Below are positions 2,142 to 31,783 of a DNA stretch of 42,045 nucleotides, one piece after another. The position numbers were made by a program, and so were the translations under genes. Under the pieces are notes generated by a model. The model had not been told where the DNA came from and did no database searches. It saw only the letters and a list, made by a program, of their open reading frames with translations. Where the stretch lies: NCBI GenBank assembly GCA_903908595.1, contig CAIVSN010000039.1, forward strand, positions 1 through 42,045. The letters are read 5' to 3'. Positions within the stretch are counted from its first letter, which is position 1. The number at the start of each line of letters is the position of its first letter. Origin of the DNA: an uncultured bacterium. Its GTDB lineage: Bacteria; Patescibacteriota; Gracilibacteria; BD1-5; UBA2023.

Positions 2142-2265
2142 GGAATATTTTGAAAAATGATGAAATTCGATGCCTATTTTGAGCACCGTAGCGAACCGTG
2201 GCAGCGCCACGGAGAGCGAGGAGCAGAAAAATTGGCGAGAAGTTCGCATTTTGCAAAATATTCCC
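2142..2265 (+). repeat. Intergenic hairpin element, family C (forward copy)
   Basis: The outer arms (2142-2159 and 2248-2265) pair over 17 of 18 bases. An inner hairpin has arms CCGTGGC/GCCACGG. The stretch GAGCACCGTAGCGA and the flanking GATGAAAT and GTTCGCATTTTG are shared with the reverse-oriented copies at 15408-15540 and 15551-15666. The stem sequences differ between copies but still pair. It lies between rimO and the promoter of the next gene. Confidence 0.7.
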
Positions 2266-2274
2266 GTTATACTT

Positions 2275-2303
2275 TTGCCTTTTTTTTCAAGAAAGGCTAT
2301 ACT
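2275..2303 (+). promoter_or_regulatory. Promoter of the SLH/PKD surface protein, probably leaderless
   Basis: TTGCCT (2275-2280), a 17-base spacer, then TATACT (2298-2303). The -10 box ends 6 bases before the ATG at 2310, so the expected transcription start is at or beside the A of ATG, leaving no room for a ribosome binding site. Confidence 0.6.
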
Positions 2304-2309
2304 TGGATT

Positions 2310-5300
2310 ATGAAACGATCGCTTCTGAAATTTTTCGCCTGCCTCGCCGCCGCCTTCTCGTTTGCTGGGGCTGCTTTTGCCTACGATTTGCCGTTTACGG
2401 ACGTGCTCCCGACCGACGGCTATTACCAGGATCTGGTCAATCTGTACGAGCGGGGCATCATCTCTGACTCGGCTGACGGACGTTTTTATCCGGATTCCCT
2501 CATGAACCGCGACGATTTCGTCTCCATCGTCGTCGGGGTAGGGTGTAAGAATTGCCTTATGCCGACGTTCGATGACATCCTCAAATACACCAAGCCGCCG
2601 TTTATTGATTTTCAGCAAGAGAACCGGAATTTTTATTGCGTTTCCTATGCGAAGGAGCAGGGAATCGTCGAGGGATACGTGACGGAATCCAATGGCAAAA
2701 GCACGTGCCAGAATGGCGAGTCCTACGCGCAGGCCCCGTTTTGTGCCGAAAACAAGATTACCCGCATCGAAGCCGCCGCCGTGCTGCTTCGTCAGGCGGG
2801 ACTTTGGAACGATACCATCAACGGCCAGAATTTCGAGAGGCGGCTGACGCTGCCCGATACTCCGACCGGCTGGTACGGCTACGCCCAAAAGGCCGTAGAC
2901 ATCGGCATCGTCATACCCGACGCCGCCGGGAAAATTCGCCCGAACGAACATATCACGAGAAAGGAATTCGTCCGCATGGCCGCGAACATTTTCCGGGTCA
3001 ACCTGTGCGCGCTTCGGACGACCGACGGCGGAACGGAGGTCCAGCCGGTCATCCCCGTGGTTCCCGCCAAAGTTTCTCCGGGGATTTCCTCCGAAATCCG
3101 GGTTCTCGATTCAAATGGCTCGTGTTCCGTTTCCGCTCCGGTTACCACGTTCTCCGATCCCAAAGACACCTCCTATACTTTTTTCGGGAGGACGGAATCC
3201 GTCGGATGAACCTATTCGTATTCGTGGAATTTTCTCAATATCCAGACCGGACAGCAGTTCGCGGCTTCCTGAGCCTGCCTCAAAGATTTCAATCTCAAAT
3301 CCAGCGGTACCTGGACAGTGGGGCTGACGGTGACCGATACCGTCACCGGAGTAACTTCCGATGCCGTTTCCACCGTTCAGATAGCCGATCCTTCCGCGCA
3401 GCCGACGCTTGCTCCGGGCGGGCTTTCCGTAACGATCCGATCGAGCAGGCTGAATGACGTCGCGCCGGCGGACATGAATTTTTCGAGCAGCGTCGCGGGA
3501 GGTACCTGACCCTATGAGTATCTTTGGGATTTCGATGACGGCTCGACCTCTACCAGCCAAGGTACGGATCACCGTTTCGATAGCCCGGGACCCAAAACCG
3601 TCAAATTGACGGTGACCGACGCCAACGGAGTCACTTCCATCGCGACTTTGGTAGTGGTCATTGCCAGTCCCGATGCCGGAACAAAGGTTACGGTCACGAC
3701 TTCCACGGGCACGACCGTCACATTGACGACTTCCACGGGAACGTTCGTGACCACGACCCCGTTGACGACCGCTACGGGGTCGGTGACGATTACCACGGCG
3801 ACTTCTACGGGTACCACGGTGACGAACGTGACTTCCACAGGAACTACGACGACCACCACTACCACTGGTACGGGCACCACTACCACGGATCCGACCGGCA
3901 CTTCGACGGGCACCACTACGACTACCATCACGGATCCGACCGGCACTTCGACGGGCACCACTACGACTACGACCACCACGGATCCGACCGGCACTTCCAC
4001 GGGCACCACGACCGTCCCCGCGAACACCGGCAGTACCCTGCCCGGAGACTTTTCAACCGGGATGAGAATCTTGGACTCCGAGATTGCCTGTTCCGTTACG
4101 GCGCCCGTTACGACTTTTCCCGATCGCGAAGACACGACGTATACTTTCTTCTGAGTGACGGAATCCACCGGTTCGACGTACGCGTACGCCTGGGATTTCG
4201 CCCGGGTGGAAGACGGTTCCCATAAGGCCGCCACCGGGGCCTGCCAGAGGAATTTCGATCTGTGAAAGGAAGGAAAATGGCTCGTCAAGCTGACCGTTAC
4301 GGATACGGTCACGCGCAAGGTATCGATTTCCACGTCCACGATTTCCATATTCGCGTCCACGGCGACGGCCCAGACCGGTACCGGCCTTTCCCTTTCCATA
4401 CGCGCAAGCCGGCTCAATGCCGTCGTTCCCGCCAATATCCAGTTCGCGAGCACCTTGACCGGTGGTGTCGGACCGTTCTTCTACCGTTGGAGTTTTTGAG
4501 ACGGCGCGTACGCCGCTTCCGTAAATCTTTTCAATCCTTCCCATCGGTTCCTGTCTCCAGGATCCCGTCCGGTAACGCTCATGGTTACGGATTCCAAGTG
4601 AATTTCCGCTACGGCTTCCGTTACGCTGTTTTTGGAGGAGAATCCGGACTTTGACGATGACGACGTTCCGAATGCCACCGACAAATGCCCGTCCGTATTT
4701 GGGCCTGCATCGAATTTTGGCTGTCCGGTAGTGGCTACTTACGATGGGGACACGCCGAATCCGGTCGCGACCTCCGCGTACGTTCCGGGGTATTCCCTCA
4801 CGCTTGCCGGAGTGAACGGCAAATGCTACTTTGCCTGCGCTTCGAGCCCCGGTGTAATTTTTGGGACTCCCGCCTGCACTTCGTGCCCGTGCCAGGTTAC
4901 GGCGGATTTCCATTCCCAGCTCCGTTCCTGCGACGTGATTTTCCCCTCCGTCATGTCGCCTTCCAAAGACACGATCTATTCCCGGGGCAAGGTATTCGAA
5001 GTGAGATTCGATACCGGCGGGGCCAATTCGTGCAAGCCGCCCGTCGTTCCCGAGACCGTGGCCTGCCGATTGCCGGAGCCTTCCTGCAAGGCAACCGGAC
5101 GATGCGCTTTGACTTTCGGAACTCCGGCGTCATCGGGCCAGGCATGGGTCAAGGGGGCGGCCGACTGCGGATTCGTTTGTAAAAACGGATTTACGGGAGC
5201 CAATTGCGAAGTTCCGCCGTCTTGTGCCGATTTGCCGGTGGGTACCATAGTTGGCAGCGCGAAATGCATCCCCTTTTATTGCACCTCTCCGGGTCGCGAG

Positions 5301-6068
5301 TGATTCGGTTGCGGTTGAATCGACGTTGACGGAAGCAATCATTGTCCTACCCAGGCATCCGATATCGCGTCCCAGGCCGTCGATCTCAAAACGTCGATTA
5401 CCGGCTTGACCGCTTCGAGCGCGAGCGGGACCTGGTATGCCTTTACCGGAGCGGCGGTCAATACTCCGATTGCGGCCGAAACCTGTTCGTATTGAACTAC
5501 GACCTATTCGCCTGGCGCGACCGGATTCGATTGCAAGTGTTCCTGAACCCCTTTGGCAATTGGTGCCTGAACTCCGTCGACAATGGGTTCTTGCGCTGCG
5601 GATCCTGCCGGAGCTTCCGCATTCGTGCTCAACCGCTGAACCCCGACGACTTCCGGCAGGCCTTGGGTTTACGACGGTAGTGCTTCGCCTGGCGCCTGTA
5701 CGTTCAAATGCGATTCCGCAAAATGATACGAATGGAATGCCGCCTCGAATCAGTGCAAGATACCTCCTTCGGGCAGTACTGCCGCTTCGACCTGCGGAAC
5801 CCCGGGCAGCTATAACGTTACCATGACGGAAGCGCAATTTTTCGACCTGGGCATCGGCGCTACCATTATGGAGACTTCCCAAGGAGTCAGGATCGTCGAA
5901 GTCGCGGGCAACGATTCCGTGATAGATCTATCGAAAATTACCATCGTTTGATCCGTTCCCAAAAATATCGTATTGGAAAATGTGAACGTCGTCTACAAAT
6001 GAATCCCCAATTGACCATATATTCTTTGTGGCGGAACGCCGCAAACGGCGGCGGTATTGCCAAGATAA
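2310..6068 (+). CDS. SLH-domain, PKD-repeat surface protein with about 17 UGA-Gly codons
   Basis: 1252 aa when UGA is read as Gly; stop TAA at 6066. Under the standard code it would break at 3207, 3270, 3507, 4152, 4263, 4497, 4599, 5301, 5316 and later sites, all in one frame and all TGA. Order: signal peptide (about 1-25); three S-layer-homology repeats (25-235) that normally bind cell-wall polymer; two PKD-type beta-sandwich modules (260-450); a Thr-rich linker (457-570); a second copy of the PKD pair (580-773); a thrombospondin-3-like Asp-rich Ca site (775-807, D-F-D-D-D-D-V then C-P and G-C-P); a Cys-rich EGF-like tail (827-1163, including N-G-F-T-G-A-N-C-E); and a C-terminal region I do not recognise. 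The two PKD pairs align, and UGA in one copy faces GGN in the other. It is probably a wall-anchored adhesin or S-layer-associated protein. Confidence 0.88.
3700..4016 (+). repeat. Thr/Ser/Gly-coding degenerate tandem repeat inside the SLH/PKD gene
   Basis: Short ACSACS-type units encode a Thr-rich linker. The clearest part has three copies of a 45-48 bp unit beginning GATCCGACCGGCACTTC at 3888, 3933 and 3981. It separates the two PKD pairs and is a likely site of length variation and O-glycosylation (inferred). Confidence 0.75.
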
Positions 6069-21560: not shown

Positions 21561-24500
21561 ATGACGCATTTCAGCCGAGTACTCCAGTTCTGGCGCATGC
21601 TTGCCATCGCGGTGGCCTTTTCTGGTACCGCGGCTTTCGCGAACTCCCCGGTTGGCGGAACGATATCGTATACCGACTGGAACGACGGGGGAACCGTCAA
21701 ATCGTCGAATCTGGATGCCGGCTCGACGGTCAGCCTCGGTGCCACGTGAGGAAACGTCGTCGGGACGTACCGGGATTCCGGGGTGATCTACCAGAAATAC
21801 GATCCCGCAACCATGACGAGCATTACGTATTTCCGCGAAATCCCCTCCCAGGCGGAGCGGGTATTGCTGACGGAATGATGGATTTCCAATTTCGATCCCG
21901 AGACGGGGGATTTCATATACGGGGTATTCGATCCGGGCGTCATGAACCGGTTTTATCGCAAGAACGTCCTCGACAGCGGTATCGGAACCTTGGTACTCGA
22001 ATTGCCCATGGGCGGGCTGGCCTCCGTTTCGCCGGATTTTTCCCGTATCGTCTATACCAGTTTCGTTCCGGAAACCTGAGTCGGTACCGCTTATCTCAAG
22101 GATACCGTATCAGGTACCGTGACGGAATTGTGAAACGCCATGTCGGAAGATTCCGAATACATGCGAAACGCCAATTTCCGATTCTTCGGCACGGGAAGCC
22201 GGATATTGAGGCAGTATACCGAGTTCAGAAAGAGCGATTGGTCCGTCACGTCGAAGACCGATACGGTCATCGACGTGACGGATCCGGGAAATCCCGTATC
22301 CGAGCCGCTCGGCATCGATCTCGGCACGTATTGACAGATAATCGGATTCCGATGATCCGACCTGTACTATGCGGTCAATTCCGGCGGAACGCCATCGGCC
22401 TATCTCCGGCGAAACGGGAGCGACATCCTCGTGTTTTCCGGGAGCGAGAACCTCGTTGCCGACTACCAGCGCGGCACCCTCGCGGGGTTCGGCGACTACG
22501 TCGCCTATTCGTACTGGGATCCGGCAACCGGAAAAAACGTCGTAGCCTACAAGAACGTATCCACCGGCGAAACCTGACCCCTGTTGTCCGGAAGCTGGGC
22601 GAACGCCGCTTCGACCTACCTACGAGCCTGGCACGATCCGTTCGATTCCCCGCTTTTCAGCACGCCGATAGGTTCTTTCGGCACTTCGTTCGCGCTCTCG
22701 GATTCTGGCAGCCTGCTCGACGCGTCGAATTTTACCGGCCCCATAGGAAGTTACGGAACCAAGTACGCTTTCGCGGATCCCGAAGACGCGCTCGTGTCCG
22801 AAGGCCGGTTTACCGGAAGCGTCGGCGCCTACGGGCAAAAATTTTCCCTCGTCGAACCTTCCTCGGATATCCTCGATCCCGTCCTGTTTACGTGAAGGGT
22901 CGGTTCGTACGGGGCGACGTACGCTTTCTCGGAACCGACGAATTACCTCTTGGAGCCGGGACTGTTCACCGGCCCGGTCGGCAGCTATGGCAACGGATTC
23001 ACCTTCCGCGAACCGGAAGTGAGCCTTTCCGACATGCACAACTACGTCGTCGGCGACCCGAACGACCTGGCGTACCTCTATGCTTCGGATTCCCCGGAAG
23101 AGTCGAAATCCGCGAAATCCGAGAATTTTGCCATTACGTCCACCGAACAGGAAAGCACCAAGGACGTGGGCGATCCGGTCAGCTTGTCCACCGGGGATTT
23201 CACGTATGACAATACCCTGATGCGGTTGCCCGGGGGAAACATGCCGTACCGCTTGGATATCCGCTACCGTTCCCAGGCACGTTTCGACGGCCCGATCGGA
23301 CAAGGTTGGGATCACGGCTACGACCACAAGCTCGTCGAGAATCCCGACGGTTCCGTCACGTATTCCGACGGAAGCCTTTCCAACCACACGTTCGTCCTCT
23401 CCGGAAGCTCGTTCGCCTATATGAAGGGCCTCGATGCCCGGCTCGTGAAAACGGAACCGTGAAAGTACGAGATACGCTTCCTGAACGGAAAGGCATATTC
23501 GTTCTGAGCCAACCGGCGCATCGCTTCCATCGTCGATGCGGACGGGAATTCCCTGGCGTTCGGATACGGTTCCGACAACCTGCTTTCCGCCGTGACCGAC
23601 ACGTACGGACGCACGGTCACGTATTCGTATTACGGGCACGGCCGGCTGTGGAAGGTCACCGATCCGACCTGACGCTATACCGAATTCTCCTATTACGGCC
23701 CGTCCGATCCCGACGGTTCGGAATTCGACCTCCGGCAAGTCAGGCTCCATAACGGTCCCGACGCGGAAAAATATATTTCCTTCACGTATGCCAAGGTCCC
23801 GGGAGACGAAAAGCTCTCGCACAATATCCTTACCATGCGGGACTCGAAGTCGCAGGTCTACGTCACGAACGCGTACGATCCGAACGACCGCGTGGTTTCC
23901 CAAGCCTATGGCGACGGCACCGTACGTTACGAATACGCGCTGGCCGATATCCATGACGACGATACGCCGGATCAGGTCGGATATTGACGGGTCGTCGGTA
24001 CCCGGGTTACCGGCAACCGCGTCACGGACAAGCGGGGCAACGTTACCCAGTACGAATACGACCGGCTCGGCAACGTGCTCCGCCGTCAGGCGTCCGGAAG
24101 CGGCACGCTCGTCACGTATGGCTACGACCGGCTCGGACGCGTCATATCCGAACGGTTGCCGAAGTGAAACGGCACGGTTTGCCAGTACGACGAACGGGGC
24201 AACCGGGCCGAAGAACGAAAAAAAGCGGACGTGTCGGCGCCCGACAGTGACGCCAACGATATCGTCACGTTCTACGCGTACGATCCCGCTACGCGGCTTC
24301 CGACCCTGTCCATGTTGCCCGACGGCAAAACCGTCCGGTACCACTACGATTCCGTAAGGCATCTCGTCAAGACGGAAATCCTCTCGGCCGTGCTCGCGGC
24401 CGGTATTCCGCCACGGGATATCGTGTCGACGAGCGAATACGGCAGCGGAGGATTCGTAACCCGGTCGACCGATGCGCTCGGCAACGTGACGGAGTATTCG

Positions 24501-27500
24501 TATTCGGGAGGTTACCTCGTCCGGACGGCGTTCGGCTCGGGAAGCACCGACTACCGTTATGATGTCCACGGCAACGTCGTATCCGTGACCGACGCTCTGG
24601 GGAATTCCAAGACGGCGACGTACGACGGATTCGACCGGCTCATGTCCAGCGTGTCCGCAGAAGGCGTGGAGAAACGGTTCCGCTACGATGCCAACAACAA
24701 CCGGATATCGGAAGAAACCGTCCTTCTGGGCGGGAATACCGCGAAGACCGCGTACGGCTACGACGTGCTCGACCACCTGGTATCGACCGTGTCCGACGTT
24801 TCGCAAGGCGTGGAAGCGGAGATTCGGCATTCGTACGACGCCGGGGAAAATCCCGTGGAGACCCGGTTCCCGAACGGAACCCGGAAAACCCTCGCGTACG
24901 ACGCGGACAACCGCGTGGTTTCCGAGACGGTAACGGCATCCGGGGGAACCGGGGGATTCGCGACCGCGTATTCCCATGACGCGAACGGCAACCGGATATC
25001 CGCGACGGACGCCTTGGGGAATACGACCCTTTTCGAATACGACGGCTTCGACCGGCTGATCGGCTCGACGGCGCCGGACGGCACTCGGACGTCCTTTTCG
25101 CTCGACCAGCTCGGAAGGGCAGTCCGCACCGATATTTCAAGTAGCGGGGGGATTCTCGTTTCCCGCGCCGATGCCTCGTATTCCGCCTACGGGAAGCCGG
25201 TCGAGACGAGGACGTGGGATCTCGATAGCGACGGAAATCCGAAGCCCGAAGGCATCCGGAGGGACCGCGTGACCCATTACGCCTACGACGCGGGCGGGAA
25301 CCTCACGGGAACCGCCGACGCGCTCGGGCACGGGACGTCCGTGGCCTACGACGCGAGCGGCCGGGCGGTATCCGTCACGGACGCCCTCGGCAACTCCGCA
25401 ACCGCCGAGTACGACGCCGCCGGGAACGCAGTGCGGAAACGGAGCGTCGGCAACGACGGCAGGGAAATTTCCGCGTATTCGGAATTCGACCGCGACGGGC
25501 GGACCGTCCGGACCTGGCAGGCCCTGTCGTGATCCGAGCTCGGCACCGCCTACGCCTACGACGCGTTCGGCACCGCCTACTCCTACGACGCGTTCGGCAA
25601 CGTCGCGTCCGAGACCGATGCCAAGGGTAACGTGACCGCGTATTCGTACGACTACCGGGGCAGGCTCCTTTCCGAGTCCTCCGTGGCGTCCGGGGCCACG
25701 GCGACGCTCTCGTACGCGTACGACCCCATGGGCAACCGGGTTTCCATGGCGGATGCCAAGGGCAACGCGACCTCCTATGCCTACGACGCGTTCGGACGAA
25801 TGGTCCGGGAAACCCTGCCGGACGGGACGGGAAACGACTATGCCTACGACGCGCTCGGCCGTGCCGTATCCAAGGCGGACGGCAACGGCAACGTCGTCGC
25901 GAACGCCTACGACGCGCTCGGGCGGGTAACCGGACGGACCGTGTCCGCCGGACCATGAGTCGCGGGAACAGGGAACGAAACGTACGCCTACGACCCACTC
26001 GGGCGTACCGTCGCGATCTCCGCTTCGGGAAGCGCGCTCGCGTTCTCATACGATTCGCTCGGGAACCTCCTCTCGGAGACTCAGGACGGCAATGTCGTCG
26101 GCTACTCGCACGACGTCCTCGGACGGAACGTCGGCACGGCGTATCCGGGAGGTAGGACGGTAGCGCAATCCCACGATGCCCTCGGCAGACTAACCAGCGT
26201 AAGCTCGGACGGCGCGAACCTCGCGTCGTACTCGTATTCCGGGACTTCGCTCGCCCGGATTTCCCATGCGAACGGCTCGTCCGAGGCTTATTCCTACGAC
26301 GCCGTCGACCGCCTAGCCGGGCTGGATATACGCACCGGGGGCTCGTTCGCGTACGCCCGGGAATACTCCTACGGTTCCGTCGGCAACCTCGAGTCCGACG
26401 GCCGGGACTCCTACGCGTACGACGCGCTCTCCCAGCTCGTGGGGGCCTCGTACGGGGAAGGCGGGGGAAGCTCCGGGACGGGAACGGAAACGTTCGCCTA
26501 CGACCCCATGGGCAACCGGACGCTGACGGAAGGCAAGGCGGGAAGCTCAGCATACGGAACCAACGGGCTCAACCAGTACGCGGGGATAAGCCTCGCGGGA
26601 AGCGGTGCCGGGACGGGTACTATCGCGTACGCGTACGACCGGAACGGGAACCTCGTTTCGGACGGGAAATTCCGCTATTCCTACGACGCGCTGAACCGGC
26701 TCGTCGCGGTCTCGGAATACGCGGTTACGGGCGGGGAGGCTGGGACGGGAAGCGGGGCGATCGAAACCGGGTCGTGAAGCGGGGTCGGATCGGGCACGTG
26801 AAGCGCCGTGACCGGCACCGGTTCCGAAACGGGAACGTGATCTTCGGGAACCGGCGTAATCGAAACGGGAACGTGAAGCGGAACGGCCGGAACCTGAACC
26901 GGCACGGGTTCGGAAACCGGCACCGGAAGCGCCGAAACTGGAACGTGAACCGCAACCTGAACGGGCGCCGAAACGGGAACCGGCAGCTCGGCGTGAACCG
27001 GAACCCTTTCCGGAACGGGAAGCGAAACCGGAACGGGAAGCGTTACGACGGGTTCGGGTTCCGAGTCCGGCACGGGAAGCGGGACCGTAGAAACCGGAAC
27101 GTGAAGCGGGATATCCGGCACCGGCTCCGAAACCGGAACCGGGAGCGAAGCGGGAACCTGATTTTCGGGAACCGGCACGACCGGAACCTGAAGCGAAACC
27201 TCCACAGGAACCCTCTCCGGCTCCGCGGGCTCCGGCGCTGAGATACAGACCGGCGCCTACTGAGATCCCGCCGTCCCCGCACGCCCCGTCGCCGAATACG
27301 CCTACGGTCCCCTCGGCCGCCGCGTCTCGAAAACCGTCTTCGGTTCCGGGGGAACGGAAGAGACCCGCTACCTCTACGCCGGGAACCGCCTGATATCCGA
27401 AACGGCCTCCCTCCGCGACGGTTCCGGCTCGCTCCTATCCTCCGTGACCACGGAATTCGCCTACGGTGAAGGGGACGACGCCGTCATCGCCATGTTCCGA

Positions 27501-28613
27501 AACGGCGCGGCGTACCATTTCCTCAGGGACCGGCTCGGAAGCACGGTGGCCGTGACCGATTCCGCATGAGGCGTCGCCGAGGAATATTCCTACGATGCCT
27601 TCGGCAGGACGTACTTCCGGAACGCAATCCATACCGGATGGATTGAAGCTTCCCAGGCGAACCGCCCCCTGACGGACCGCCTCTTCACCGGGCGCGAGCT
27701 CGACGCGGAGACGGGCCTCTACTTCTACCGGGCCCGGCATTACGATCCTTCCCTCTGAAGGTTCCTCCAGCGCGACCCCATCGGGACGACGGACGACGCG
27801 AACCCGTACCGGTACGTTCGGAACGGGCCGACGATGGGGACGGATCCGACGGGGCTGTACAGCATGGGGGAACTGGGGGACGACATTCTCGCGAACCAGA
27901 CTAGGCTCGGCGGGGCTGTAAAGATAGGACTAGGCGCAGCCCAGGCTTCGGCCGGCGGGGCATTGGTGGCAACGGGCGTAGGATCCTGCTGAGTGACCTT
28001 CGGGGCCGGATGCCTGCTGGCAGGCTACGGCGCCGAGCAGATGGCGGAAGGGTGAGCCATGATCGCAGACGGCGCATACGAGATGGTGACCAACGAGGAA
28101 CATACGGCATTCAACGATTTCTCGATGCGGTACAATCCGGTGCACAGGGGCATAGATGCCTTGATGCCCGGAAACTGCAAGGACAAGGCGGCAGTGAAAG
28201 TCGCGGCGGACATACTGCTGGGATTCGGGGCGAACAAGGTGAAATCCTGGGCGGAGCTGAGGGGTTTGCAAAATATCCCGATGAAATGAATCATGTCGAA
28301 ATGAATTGCTATGGATCTGGAAAATATTGGTGAAGAATTTTCTATTTGATGAGATAGTGATGCATTATTTGATTTTATAGTGCAGAACTGAAAAATTAAA
28401 ACCGGCTATTGACATCCATTTTTGGCTAATTGATGAACGGTTAATTATGCCGGAACAATTAAGCTTACTGAATGAAAGATTACGAGTTGGTCTAATTTCT
28501 CCTGACACTATATGCCTGAATGGGACGATCTGGCAGGGATCAACTACACCACAAAACTTTTTCAGAGGGAATTTTGAACTGACCTTCGGAATTTTTTACC
28601 AATTAAATTTTAA
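21561..28613 (+). CDS. Secreted Rhs/YD-repeat polymorphic toxin with about 42 UGA-Gly codons
   Basis: 2350 aa in one frame, stop TAA; every internal stop is TGA. Order: Sec signal peptide (1-28); propeller-like region (30-360); five repeats of about 30-34 residues (366-490) built on F-T-G-P-I-G-S-Y-G; the Rhs N-terminal module G-D-P-V-S-L-S-T-G-D-F (about 535-630); YD repeats (640-1735; Y-D-A-L-G-R, Y-D-P-M-G-N-R) that should form the hollow toxin cocoon; a low-complexity segment (1735-1895); the conserved core end Y-D-P-S-L-G-R-F-L-Q-R-D-P-I-G (about 2065), whose Gly is UGA; then a unique 250-residue tip. The tip has a hydrophobic Gly/Ala stretch and ends in an AT-rich domain with A-N-G-G-T-V-N-Y-A-G and S-N-F-S-G-H-Y-M-P, resembling a C-terminal signature I recall from other polymorphic toxins. 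The toxic activity is not assigned. The immunity gene follows after 5 bases. Confidence 0.9.
26763..27245 (+). repeat. Gly-Ser-Glu-Thr low-complexity segment inside the Rhs gene
   Basis: About 480 bp of degenerate repeats on GGNACNGGNTCNGARACN encode E-T-G-T-G-S-type units; 11 of the Gly codons are UGA. The flanking Rhs core resumes normally on both sides (S-E-Y-A-V-T-G-G before, Y-A-Y-G-P-L-G-R-R-V-S after), so this is an expanded loop within the cocoon. Confidence 0.8.
27285..27860 (+). repeat. Rhs core segment, copy 1 (in the full-length gene)
   Basis: 576 bp that match 29169-29744 base for base without gaps, with about 43 mismatches by hand count (about 92% identity). It ends at the D-P-T-G-L-Y junction, after which the two copies are unrelated. 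Both copies keep TGA at the same two Gly positions. Confidence 0.9.
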
Positions 28614-28618
28614 TAAAT

Positions 28619-29071
28619 ATGAATTTAGCCGACATTCGATTCTTAGTATATTCCCTTTGTTATACGATTGAGGACCCGTTGAGCTTAATGAGTGAATTAA
28701 ATGAAGAAGTACTGAAACTATGAGTAGCTCAAAATGAAAAGGATGCTGGCGATTATATTAATAATAAGATAGATTCATATTTTTCAATGTTCATGAACTA
28801 TTCTCAATTTGAATTTAATACATTTATTAAGGATATGCTGAAATATATAAGAGCGAATTTCGATACCGAAAACTATTATTTTATCTCGTTCAGAATAATA
28901 AATTATTTCTTTTTTGAAAAGTCTGTTTTTCTTAAATTTAAGAATCAAGAATTGTTTACGATATTGTATGATTTGGGTAACGAAATGGTGGTCAATTCAA
29001 AATTTGAATTGAATATTCAGGCTGGCGATACCCTTATGAGGACGATAGATGCTAAAAGAAACGGTAAATAA
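28619..29071 (+). CDS. Candidate immunity protein of the Rhs toxin
   Basis: 150 aa with one UGA-Gly (K-L-G-V-A-Q-N), stop TAA. It starts 5 bases after the Rhs stop, in the place immunity genes take in Rhs and contact-dependent systems. It is very rich in AT, Phe, Tyr, Ile and Asn (Y-F-S-M-F-M-N-Y, I-I-N-Y-F-F-F-E-K), unlike the housekeeping genes. There is no signal peptide; it is a small, probably helical cytosolic protein. I recognise no family, so the assignment rests on position, size and composition. Confidence 0.7.
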
Positions 29072-29153
29072 TCCCCCTTCCACATTAAGATGATACGCTC
29101 GCCTGCTTATACTTCTTGCCATTTTGATTCCTGATAGATTCCTCATGTCGTAA

Positions 29154-30323
29154 GCTCTCCCCGTCCGTCCCGTCGCCGCCTACGCCTACGGTCCCCTCGG
29201 CCGCCGCGTCTCGAAAACCGTCTTCGGTTCCGGGGGAACGGAAGAGACCCGCTACCTCTACGCCGGGAACCGGATAATATCCGAAACGGCCTCCCTCCGC
29301 GACGGTTCCGGCTCGCTCCTGTCCTCCGCGACCACGCAGTACGCCTACGGGGAAGGGGACGACGCCGTCGTCGCGATGTTCCGGGACGGCGCGGCGTACC
29401 ATTTCCTCCGCGACCGGCTCGGAAGCACGGTGGCCGTCACGGACTCCGCGTGAGGCATTGTCGAGGAGTACTCCTACGATGCCTTCGGCAGGACGTACCT
29501 CCGGAACGCAATCCATACCGGATGGGTCGAAGCGTCCCAGGCGAGCCGCCCCCTGACGGACCGCCTCTTCACCGGGCGCGAGCTCGACGCCGAGACGGGG
29601 CTGTACTTCTACCGGGCCCGGCATTACGGTCCTTCCCTCTGAAGGTTCCTCCAGCGTGACCCGATAGGGACGGCTGATGACCCGAACCCGTACCGGTACG
29701 TTCGGAACGGGCCGACGATGGGGACGGACCCGACGGGGCTGTACGCGAAGCTCGTAGTCTCGGAGGCTTCGGACTTCCTCGGGATACGCGACGCGGCGGA
29801 CGGCCTATGAAACGTCGCGGCCTACTGGACCGGGTACGCCATGGGGGATATTTACCTCCAGCGGACCGCGGAGGCAGGCATGCGGGATTCCCTCGGGAGG
29901 CTCACGGATCCCGTGGCTTTCCTCATGAACCGGGTGGGGAAGGCGAAGAGGTACGGGGGATTGGCGGTGGGGCTCGCGGAAAGGAACGGCGCTTCGGGAA
30001 TCGCGAGGAATGTGAGGAGAATTTCTGGCATTGCTGAGGATTGACTCGGAAATAGTGGAATTTCTGCTTCTGTCTATGACTTCATAAATACACATAAAAT
30101 TGATAAAAAGCGAGTTGAGAAAATTAAAGGACTAATTCAAAACGAGTGGGACTGAGAGATACAAGAAACAATTAAATATGTTGAATTCAAAGGTGAAAAA
30201 TATATCGTAGATTGACACCATAGGATACGTGCAGCTATGGAACTTGGGATTGATGAAGTGAAAGCTGAATCAGTTCAATTGCCGTATCTATGATACAAAA
30301 CAGTGTCGGACTTATTCTTTTAA
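29154..30323 (+). pseudogene. Orphan Rhs tip: start-less core fragment fused to a ParB-like nuclease tip
   Basis: One frame, open from just after TAA at 29151 to TAA at 30321 (389 codons, seven UGA-Gly), with no start codon before the Rhs core. The first 197 codons are the core (second copy of the 576-bp repeat). After D-P-T-G-L-Y comes a different tip: a helical linker, then an AT-rich domain with K-Y-I-V-D-G-H-H-R-I-R-A-A-M-E-L-G, the ParB/sulfiredoxin-like nuclease motif known from polymorphic toxins; its central Gly is UGA at 30213. Displaced tips of this kind are a known feature of Rhs/CDI loci, where they can replace the active tip by recombination through the shared core. It is probably silent as it stands. 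Confidence 0.85.
29169..29744 (+). repeat. Rhs core segment, copy 2 (orphan tip)
   Basis: Partner of 27285-27860: same length, no gaps, about 92% identical by hand count. It provides homology for tip exchange. Confidence 0.9.
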
Positions 30324-30345
30324 ACTTATTCTTTTAAATTATATC

Positions 30346-30801
30346 ATGGCAATTTGGCAAACCTCAATCGATTTGTGATATCCTGATAATATTGACCTGA
30401 AGGAACTCATTGCTAGATTAGAATTCATATTCTGATCAAATAATAGCAAAATATCTTCCATGCTGCATTTTGGAAACTTCGAGGGTGATGATTTTGCTAT
30501 TTATCTTAAAGACGGAATTTTAGATGGGTTAAATTTACGTTTTGTCCCAGATGAGAATTTTTCGAAAAGACTACCATTATATTTGAAATTTATATGAGAT
30601 TTCAAATTAACCTGATTCGATGACAGTGGAAATTTGTTACTTGGAGAAAAAGAATGGAATGTGTATTTTCTGAAATCAAACGCTAAGAAATTTTTAGATT
30701 CTCCATTGGATTTTTTTGATAAATTATATTTAGAAAGAGACAGTGACAATAATCAACCTAAACGTTTCACCACCCCACACCGCCCCCGTCAAATAACTTA
30801 A
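30346..30801 (+). CDS. Candidate immunity protein of the orphan ParB-like tip
   Basis: 151 aa with four UGA-Gly codons, stop TAA. It begins 22 bases after the tip's stop, behind a short direct duplication (CTTATTCTTTTAAA twice, about 30311-30337). AT-rich and acidic, with beta-rich sequence (D-D-F-A-I-Y-L-K-D-G-I-L-D-G-L-N-L-R-F). The last 15 residues (P-K-R-F-T-T-P-H-R-P-R-Q) are GC-rich and unlike the rest, so the 3' end may have been replaced by sequence from the neighbouring insertion element. No family is recognised; the assignment is by position and composition. Confidence 0.65.
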
Positions 30802-30908
30802 AATCTACGACTACCGGTTCCACGGTCGTGAAATCCCCCCGATCCGCCACGGTCCCCCTACCCCGGGCCCATTCCCGGACCTGGGGTTTCCACTGGACGA
30901 TATCCCGG

Positions 30909-31508
30909 CTAGAGCACGAGGACTTCGAGACGCTGCACGGCATCCAGTATCCTCTGGAACAGGTCTTGGAACGCGAAGCCCGAAGCGCACTTGCAACAGA
31001 TCCGCCTCCCGGTCCGGACGATTCTGGCGGGAATGGAGAAGATCCGTTTCCTGAGCGTGGATATGTCGGGAAGCCGCACCCGTTTCCTTCCGACCTTCCC
31101 CTTCTTGAATTTCTTCGTGATCTTGGCGGAGTCTTGCCGTTTCGGCTGTACCGCCGTTCTTTCCGGGTACGCGCCCTCTCATGAAAACGTGAACTTGCGG
31201 AACAGCTGCGCCAGCTGTATGGCGAGGAGGTGGATCTGGAGCTTAGCCGAATTTGCCGGGAATCCCTCGTGGCTCAGGTGGTCCGCGTCGAAGCCGTTCT
31301 TCGCCTCCTCTATGGATTTCTCGATGCTCGCCCGCCCGTTGTACATGGAAAATACCTCCTCGCCCGAAAGCGCCGTATCGTTCGTGACCACGAAAGAATA
31401 AACGGGGAAAAGCTCGAGCTGCCCCTTCTTGCCGCCCTGCGCCCAGTCGATACAGGCGACCACCCTCCGCGCTTTTTCCCACGTCCGCGCTCGGTATTCC
31501 AGTTCCAC
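30909..31508 (-). pseudogene. IS1380-family transposase, C-terminal fragment
   Basis: 199 codons with one UGA-Gly (31179), stop TAG. It matches the C-terminal part of IS1380 transposases: Y-N-G-R-A-S-I-E-K-S-I-E-E-A-K-N-G-F with the catalytic-domain Glu, F-P-A-N-S-A-K-L-Q-I-H-L-L-A-I-Q-L-A, and I-P-A-R-I-V-R-T-G-R-R. Family members are usually over 400 aa, so the N-terminal half is missing; the frame meets TAG just upstream, at the junction with the AT-rich gene at 31517. This is a dead remnant inside the toxin-tip region, a common fate there. Confidence 0.8.
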
Positions 31509-31516
31509 TTCCAGCT

Positions 31517-31783
31517 ATGGGCGAGGCGTATTTTTTTAAAAAGGACAAGGAGGTTTTGGAATTGCAGTATGCGGATCCTGAATGTAATTCGTACACTCGC
31601 TGAGAAATATTTGTATTTTCCGACATCGATAATTTCGAGCGCGAGCTCTCGGCATACATGGGCTGGATAGATCTGCTCATTGAGAGAATAAGAAATTCCG
31701 ATCTGGACCAAGATGTCAAAAACGATCATTTTAGGATCGTTTTCGTAAGTATGAAGCATGAATTGAACAAAAACCTTTTATAA
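31517..31783 (+). CDS. Small AT-rich ORF, possible truncated immunity gene
   Basis: 88 aa with one UGA-Gly (S-Y-T-R-G-E-I-F-V-F), stop TAA. It begins at the junction with the truncated transposase, so the true 5' end may be lost. The content is acidic and hydrophobic (F-S-D-I-D-N-F-E-R-E-L-S-A-Y, I-R-N-S-D-L-D-Q-D-V), similar in style to the two candidate immunity proteins upstream. No family is recognised. Confidence 0.5.

What the first reader, a model, noticed from the sequence alone, without database searches (positions are those of the whole stretch)
29154..30801. Orphan ParB-like toxin tip with its own candidate immunity gene, poised for tip exchange
A second, start-less Rhs core (576 bp, about 92% identical, gap-free) precedes an unrelated tip carrying V-D-G-H-H-R, followed by an AT-rich gene. 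Homology ends exactly at D-P-T-G-L-Y. One recombination through the 576-bp repeat would delete the present tip and immunity gene and install this one. Both core copies keep UGA at the same two Gly positions, so the exchange would remain readable.
Basis: partly seen in the sequence, partly recalled or inferred. Interest (0 to 1): 0.75.

Follow-up and report, generated by a model that had tools for sequence, protein, structure and literature searches.

The report
Silent spare toxin tip for Rhs
Behind its large Rhs weapon gene, this bacterium, which reads the stop codon UGA as glycine, keeps a start-less spare toxin tip with its own antidote gene; such spare tips are known from enterobacteria and turn out to be common in this group, though no swap was seen here.

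Summary
A start-less Rhs core (29158-29744) matches the full Rhs gene (27274-27860) over 587 bp without gaps at 92.2%, and the match stops at DPTGLY. The tip behind it is unrelated to the present tip. Its last ~90 residues model well as a ParB/sulfiredoxin fold with the DGHHR motif that marks Tox-ParB, and the Gly of that motif is itself a UGA codon. The AT-rich gene behind it is very probably its immunity gene, because another Gracilibacterium genome carries the same tip+gene pair, also as an orphan, behind a non-Rhs adhesin-type toxin.

This is an orphan rhs-CT/rhsI module of the kind known from enterobacteria; in Salmonella a 522-bp, 95% repeat was shown to swap tips. What is added is the setting: a UGA=Gly patescibacterial order in which 25 of 77 genomes hold Rhs cores, 15 of them as tandem arrays of start-less tip cassettes, with tips seen on full genes in some genomes and silent in others. 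Exchange at this locus is inferred, not shown. 'Nuclease' is uncertain for this fold. New member of a known kind.

The parts
21561..28613 (+). full-length Rhs toxin gene (2350 aa, code 25): N-terminal signal-like segment, DUF6531, YD repeats, Gly/Thr/Ser-rich linker, Rhs core, present tip
27274..27860 (+). core segment of the full gene shared with the orphan (587 bp, 92%)
27861..28613 (+). present tip: GC-rich linker, then AT-rich toxin domain with NxSGHY motif; relatives in 6 other genomes of the order; function unknown
28619..29071 (+). candidate immunity gene of the present tip (150 aa, 29% GC)
   Evidence: position only
29151..29153 (+). in-frame stop that cuts the orphan core off from upstream
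29158..29744 (+). orphan Rhs core, start-less, gap-free copy of the main core
29745..30323 (+). orphan tip: GC-rich linker 29745 to about 30030, then AT-rich toxin domain
30051..30320 (+). ParB/sulfiredoxin-fold (Tox-ParB) toxin domain
30207..30224 (+). VDGHHR motif; its Gly (30213-30215) is a UGA codon
30346..30801 (+). cognate immunity gene candidate (151 aa; last ~15 aa extend beyond the conserved part)
   Evidence: homologous to P0005 behind the ParB tip in G045
30820..31520 (-). remnant of a DDE transposase (Pfam DDE_Tnp_1_4, C-terminal part only) that bounds the cassette downstream

Best explanation
This is an orphan Rhs tip/immunity module (rhs-CT/rhsI). Shown: a start-less, in-frame copy of the last 195 codons of the Rhs core leads into a Tox-ParB-type toxin domain and its probable immunity gene, directly behind an intact Rhs gene that carries another tip and antidote candidate. 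Inferred: the toxin is silent where it lies, while its immunity gene may be expressed and protect against kin that use this tip. Homologous recombination anywhere in the 587-bp repeat would give an in-frame full Rhs gene with the ParB tip. The orphan is either a tip displaced from the full gene earlier or an imported module held in reserve. Arrays of this kind form a standing library from which tip and antidote are exchanged as a unit.
For: Gap-free in-frame repeat ending at DPTGLY. dN/dS about 0.2: only 18 non-synonymous changes in total against about 42 expected on the orphan branch alone had it drifted since the split, so the orphan core has spent much of its history in a functional gene. 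ParB fold: pLDDT 85, Foldseek and VIA hits to ParB, Noc, sulfiredoxin and serine kinase (Z up to 11.2); DGHHR is the Tox-ParB signature (PMC3482391). The tip+immunity pair recurs in G045 behind a different delivery protein. Tandem arrays in 15 of 25 Rhs-bearing genomes of the order, 1-3 kb apart on the same strand, including one on a 1.34-Mb contig. The same tip is on a full gene in G040 and on a start-less cassette in G056: 77.6% DNA identity from -188 to +866 around the core end, while the core further upstream is unalike. In further cases tip and next gene match together. Precedent by experiment in Salmonella, with a 522-bp 95% repeat (PMC3967940).
Against: No recombined junction or read data. 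The two cores are 8% apart, so no recent exchange between them. No full Rhs gene with this very tip was found in the order or in the scanned collections. An internal ATG at 29880 with GGAGG upstream could let the toxin domain be made in place, so full silence is not certain. The confident ParB model used an alignment that included known ParB-like proteins; with only its one close relative the model of the whole tip was poor.
Confidence: 0.85

Rival explanations
1. Dead remnant: a displaced tip decaying next to an IS remnant, with no present role.
For: Start-less, beside a truncated transposase; 3' end of the immunity gene looks altered; no relative with this tip on a full gene.
Against: Frame fully open with no frameshift, DGHHR intact, immunity gene open, core constrained; cassettes stay open in most arrays of the order.
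Confidence: 0.2
2. Toxin-antitoxin use in place: the orphan toxin domain is translated from an internal start and acts inside the cell, as proposed for the Salmonella orphan RHS (PMC7043789, title and start of abstract only).
For: ATG 29880 with GGAGG 5 nt upstream would give 147 aa including the ParB domain.
Against: The main gene and both immunity genes show no such ribosome site, so the motif may be chance in GC-rich DNA; no promoter clearly above chance.
Confidence: 0.1
3. Assembly artefact: two strain variants of one Rhs locus joined.
For: The assembly is a bin of 186 contigs with 5% contamination and 2.4 Mb against about 1.1 Mb for its genus mate.
Against: Same layout in 15 genomes of the order, including a 1.34-Mb contig, and in 8 genomes elsewhere in the phylum; tips and immunity genes differ fully.
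Confidence: 0.04

Closest known systems
Orphan rhs-CT/rhsI module of Salmonella LT2 (Koskiniemi 2014, PMC3967940)
   Same: full rhs gene, then start-less core+tip+immunity; repeat of similar length (522 bp, 95% there; 587 bp, 92% here) ending at DPxGL
   Different: recombination shown there, only inferred here; different N-terminus (signal peptide-like here, T6SS export there), UGA=Gly code, other tip families
Arrays of dissociated Rhs tips in enterobacteria (Jackson 2009, PMC2935791) and orphan cdiA-CT/cdiI modules (Poole 2011, PMC3150448)
   Same: homology confined to core, unrelated tips of different GC, transposase remnants nearby, orphan tips found on full genes in other strains
   Different: Patescibacteria; arrays described here for an order with code 25
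Tox-ParB toxin family (Zhang 2012, PMC3482391)
   Same: C-terminal ParB-fold domain with DGHHR motif, RHS linkage
   Different: listed immunities are Imm20, Imm27, Imm-SuFu; the partner here matches no Pfam or NCBIfam family; Patescibacteria not in the listed distribution
WapA of Bacillus subtilis
   Same: B. subtilis rings in the same Rhs core search; secreted YD-repeat protein with exchangeable tip (own knowledge and PMC3967940)
   Different: no orphan array compared here

Membership tests
orphan rhs-CT/rhsI module | start-less fragment of Rhs core downstream of a full rhs gene, same strand | tested here: met
orphan rhs-CT/rhsI module | core homology ends at DPxGL; tips unrelated | tested here: met
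orphan rhs-CT/rhsI module | immunity gene directly behind the tip | tested here: met
   gene at 30346 conserved with the same tip family in G045; protection itself not tested
orphan rhs-CT/rhsI module | toxicity neutralised by the partner; delivery after fusion | not testable with these tools
   needs expression and competition assays
Tox-ParB | ParB/sulfiredoxin fold | tested here: met
   (alignment included ParB-like rows); weak Pfam ParBc_2 E 0.0036, below cut-off
Tox-ParB | DGHHR motif | tested here: met
   VDGHHR in the window; LDGYHR in G045 (motif)
Tox-ParB | known Tox-ParB immunity family next door | tested here: inconclusive
   no Pfam or NCBIfam match for the partner
Rhs proteins | YD repeats and Rhs_assc_core | tested here: met
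   PF05593 E 9e-96; TIGR03696 75.8 and 77.8 bits, cut-off 32.5

The most novel reading that the evidence does not exclude
In this UGA=Gly order, Rhs tip libraries serve as a switchable arsenal, and UGA codons inside the toxin domains (here in the conserved motif itself) keep the weapons unreadable to bacteria with the standard code, so that cassettes circulate only among code-25 kin.
Probability: 0.1. Interest if true: 0.7.

Novelty: new member of a known kind. Interest (0 to 1): 0.45.

Why it matters
It extends the orphan-tip system from enterobacteria and other well-studied phyla to Gracilibacteria-type Patescibacteria, a reduced-genome group thought to live on other bacteria. Rhs cores are several times commoner in this order (25 of 77) than in the rest of the phylum sampled (29 of 379), and most Rhs-bearing genomes hold arrays. 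That makes tip switching testable in populations from metagenomic reads, and gives a new toxin-immunity pair to test.

Tried and rejected
Scans of genome contigs and viral contigs for the orphan tip found only G045 plus one 17-residue viral-contig match that a six-frame search did not bear out. The first structure model of the whole tip was unusable (pLDDT 39), so it was not searched. Profiles of the present tip and of the immunity pair hit nothing in the PDB. PADLOC gave only chance-level hits. A first motif search for cores was too strict and was replaced by a profile. A tRNA-Gly pattern scan was no better than its control; the Rfam tRNA search with ARAGORN answered the question. Papers: none found in the held library on Rhs arrays in Gracilibacteria; one Gracilibacterium genome paper mentions only a large protein annotated as toxin-complex-like. 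That library is incomplete, so prior reports are not excluded.

Full report
What is there. The window is contig C39 of a 2.41-Mb, 186-contig genome that reads UGA as glycine. Under code 25 the Rhs gene is open for 2350 codons with 42 UGA, and the genome has a tRNA with anticodon UCA next to tRNA-Gly(GCC) on contig C142, which ARAGORN labels selenocysteine. The Rhs gene (21561-28613) has YD repeats, DUF6531 and an Rhs_assc_core. Its tip and a small gene (28619-29071) follow. Behind them comes a second core, 29158-29744, cut off upstream by a stop, then another tip and another small gene.

The repeat. The two cores match over 587 bp without a gap at 92.2%. The match stops just after DPTGLY and falls to chance. 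Since the copies are in the same frame and have no gaps, a crossover anywhere inside would keep the frame (direct reading). dS is 0.21 and dN 0.043. Had the orphan core drifted freely since the split, about 42 non-synonymous changes would be expected on its branch alone; both branches together have 18 (a rough Poisson estimate). The orphan core has therefore been part of a working gene for a good part of that time, or is still under selection. Exchange between these two copies is not recent.

Composition. Each tip has two layers: a GC-rich linker (61-63%), then an AT-rich toxin domain and immunity gene (29-34%), with the step near 28270 and 30030. The foreign-looking part is thus toxin domain plus immunity gene, while core homology ends earlier, at DPTGLY.

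The orphan toxin. Pfam ParBc_2 is matched weakly (E 0.0036, below cut-off). A profile of this tip and its one close relative picks up SbnI and sulfiredoxin in the PDB (E 0.003-0.03) and true ParB proteins in genomes. A model of the last 90 residues from an 8-row alignment has pLDDT 85 and pTM 0.74. Its best solved matches are serine kinase, sulfiredoxin, ParB and Noc (Foldseek E down to 3e-5; VIA Z up to 11.2). Caveat: six of the eight rows were ParB-like proteins found by the profile, so the model is not wholly independent. Zhang et al. 2012 (PMC3482391) report a strongly conserved DGHHR motif in Tox-ParB and explain why the nuclease label is doubtful. Here the motif is VDGHHR and its Gly is a UGA codon.

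The immunity gene. In G045, an uncultured Candidatus Gracilibacteria MAG (contig named), the same ParB domain (36% identity) lies as a start-less, core-less 79-aa frame behind a 2291-aa protein with F5/8 type C domains and a weak Ntox33 match. It too is followed by a MA[IV]WQ... gene related to the window's 30346-30801 gene (30% over 69 aa, single-comparison E 3e-7). Conservation of the pair across two delivery platforms is the main evidence that the second gene is the cognate antidote.

The wider pattern. Rhs cores occur in 25 of 77 genomes of the order and in 29 of 379 others sampled from the phylum. In 15 of the 25, two to four cores stand in tandem on one strand 0.9-3.3 kb apart (19 arrays). 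Where the array is complete, one full gene (1600-3200 aa) comes first, and start-less core-tip frames follow, nearly all with a small gene behind them. Eight further arrays lie elsewhere in the phylum, with frames open under the standard code. In-array cores are mostly 75-96% identical and the match ends at or just before D[PR]xG. In one genus a tip with its following DNA sits on a full gene in G040 and on a silent cassette in G056 (77.6% over 1061 bp, -188 to +866), while the cores further upstream are unalike. Further full/orphan tip pairs share the next gene too (G046 against G056, G023, G014). This is comparative evidence that tip and antidote move between active and silent slots.

Known kind. 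The layout matches orphan rhs-CT/rhsI modules. In Salmonella LT2 evidence was given that recombination through a 522-bp, 95% repeat activates the orphan. The authors proposed that duplication comes first, so that immunity to unswitched siblings is kept. The same concern applies here: a plain deletion between the repeats would remove 28619-29071 and leave the switched cell open to its kin.

What is not shown. No recombinant, no expression, no toxicity. I did not build the fused gene sequence; the argument rests on register alone.

Noticed in passing
G000:C3:194-1483 (L035): A third Rhs core, start-less and near a contig end, with a tip related to one in G013.
   Followed up: partly
window 26774-27260: Gly/Thr/Ser/Glu-rich low-complexity linker in the main Rhs gene with about a dozen UGA codons, just before the shared core and absent from the orphan.
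   Followed up: no
L061 (G045:C12): Large F5/8 type C domain protein with a weak Ntox33 tip, a DUF4279 gene and the orphan ParB tip with immunity gene: a non-Rhs polymorphic toxin with its own spare cassette.
   Followed up: partly
L091, L092, L095, L096 (G035:C3, G054:C9): Relatives of the present tip (NxSGHYKP motif) stand in tandem about 1 kb apart, so other toxin loci also seem to keep spare tips.
   Followed up: partly
window 30820-31520 (-): Truncated DDE transposase; a 75% copy lies on contig C37.
   Followed up: partly
L119 (G000:C142): UCA-anticodon tRNA beside tRNA-Gly(GCC), labelled tRNA-SeC by ARAGORN; presumably the UGA-reading glycine tRNA.
   Followed up: partly
G000: Genome of 2.4 Mb against about 1.1 Mb for its genus mate; the bin may be mixed or the genome truly large.
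   Followed up: no
window 2157-6068: Protein with S-layer homology and PKD domains.
   Followed up: no
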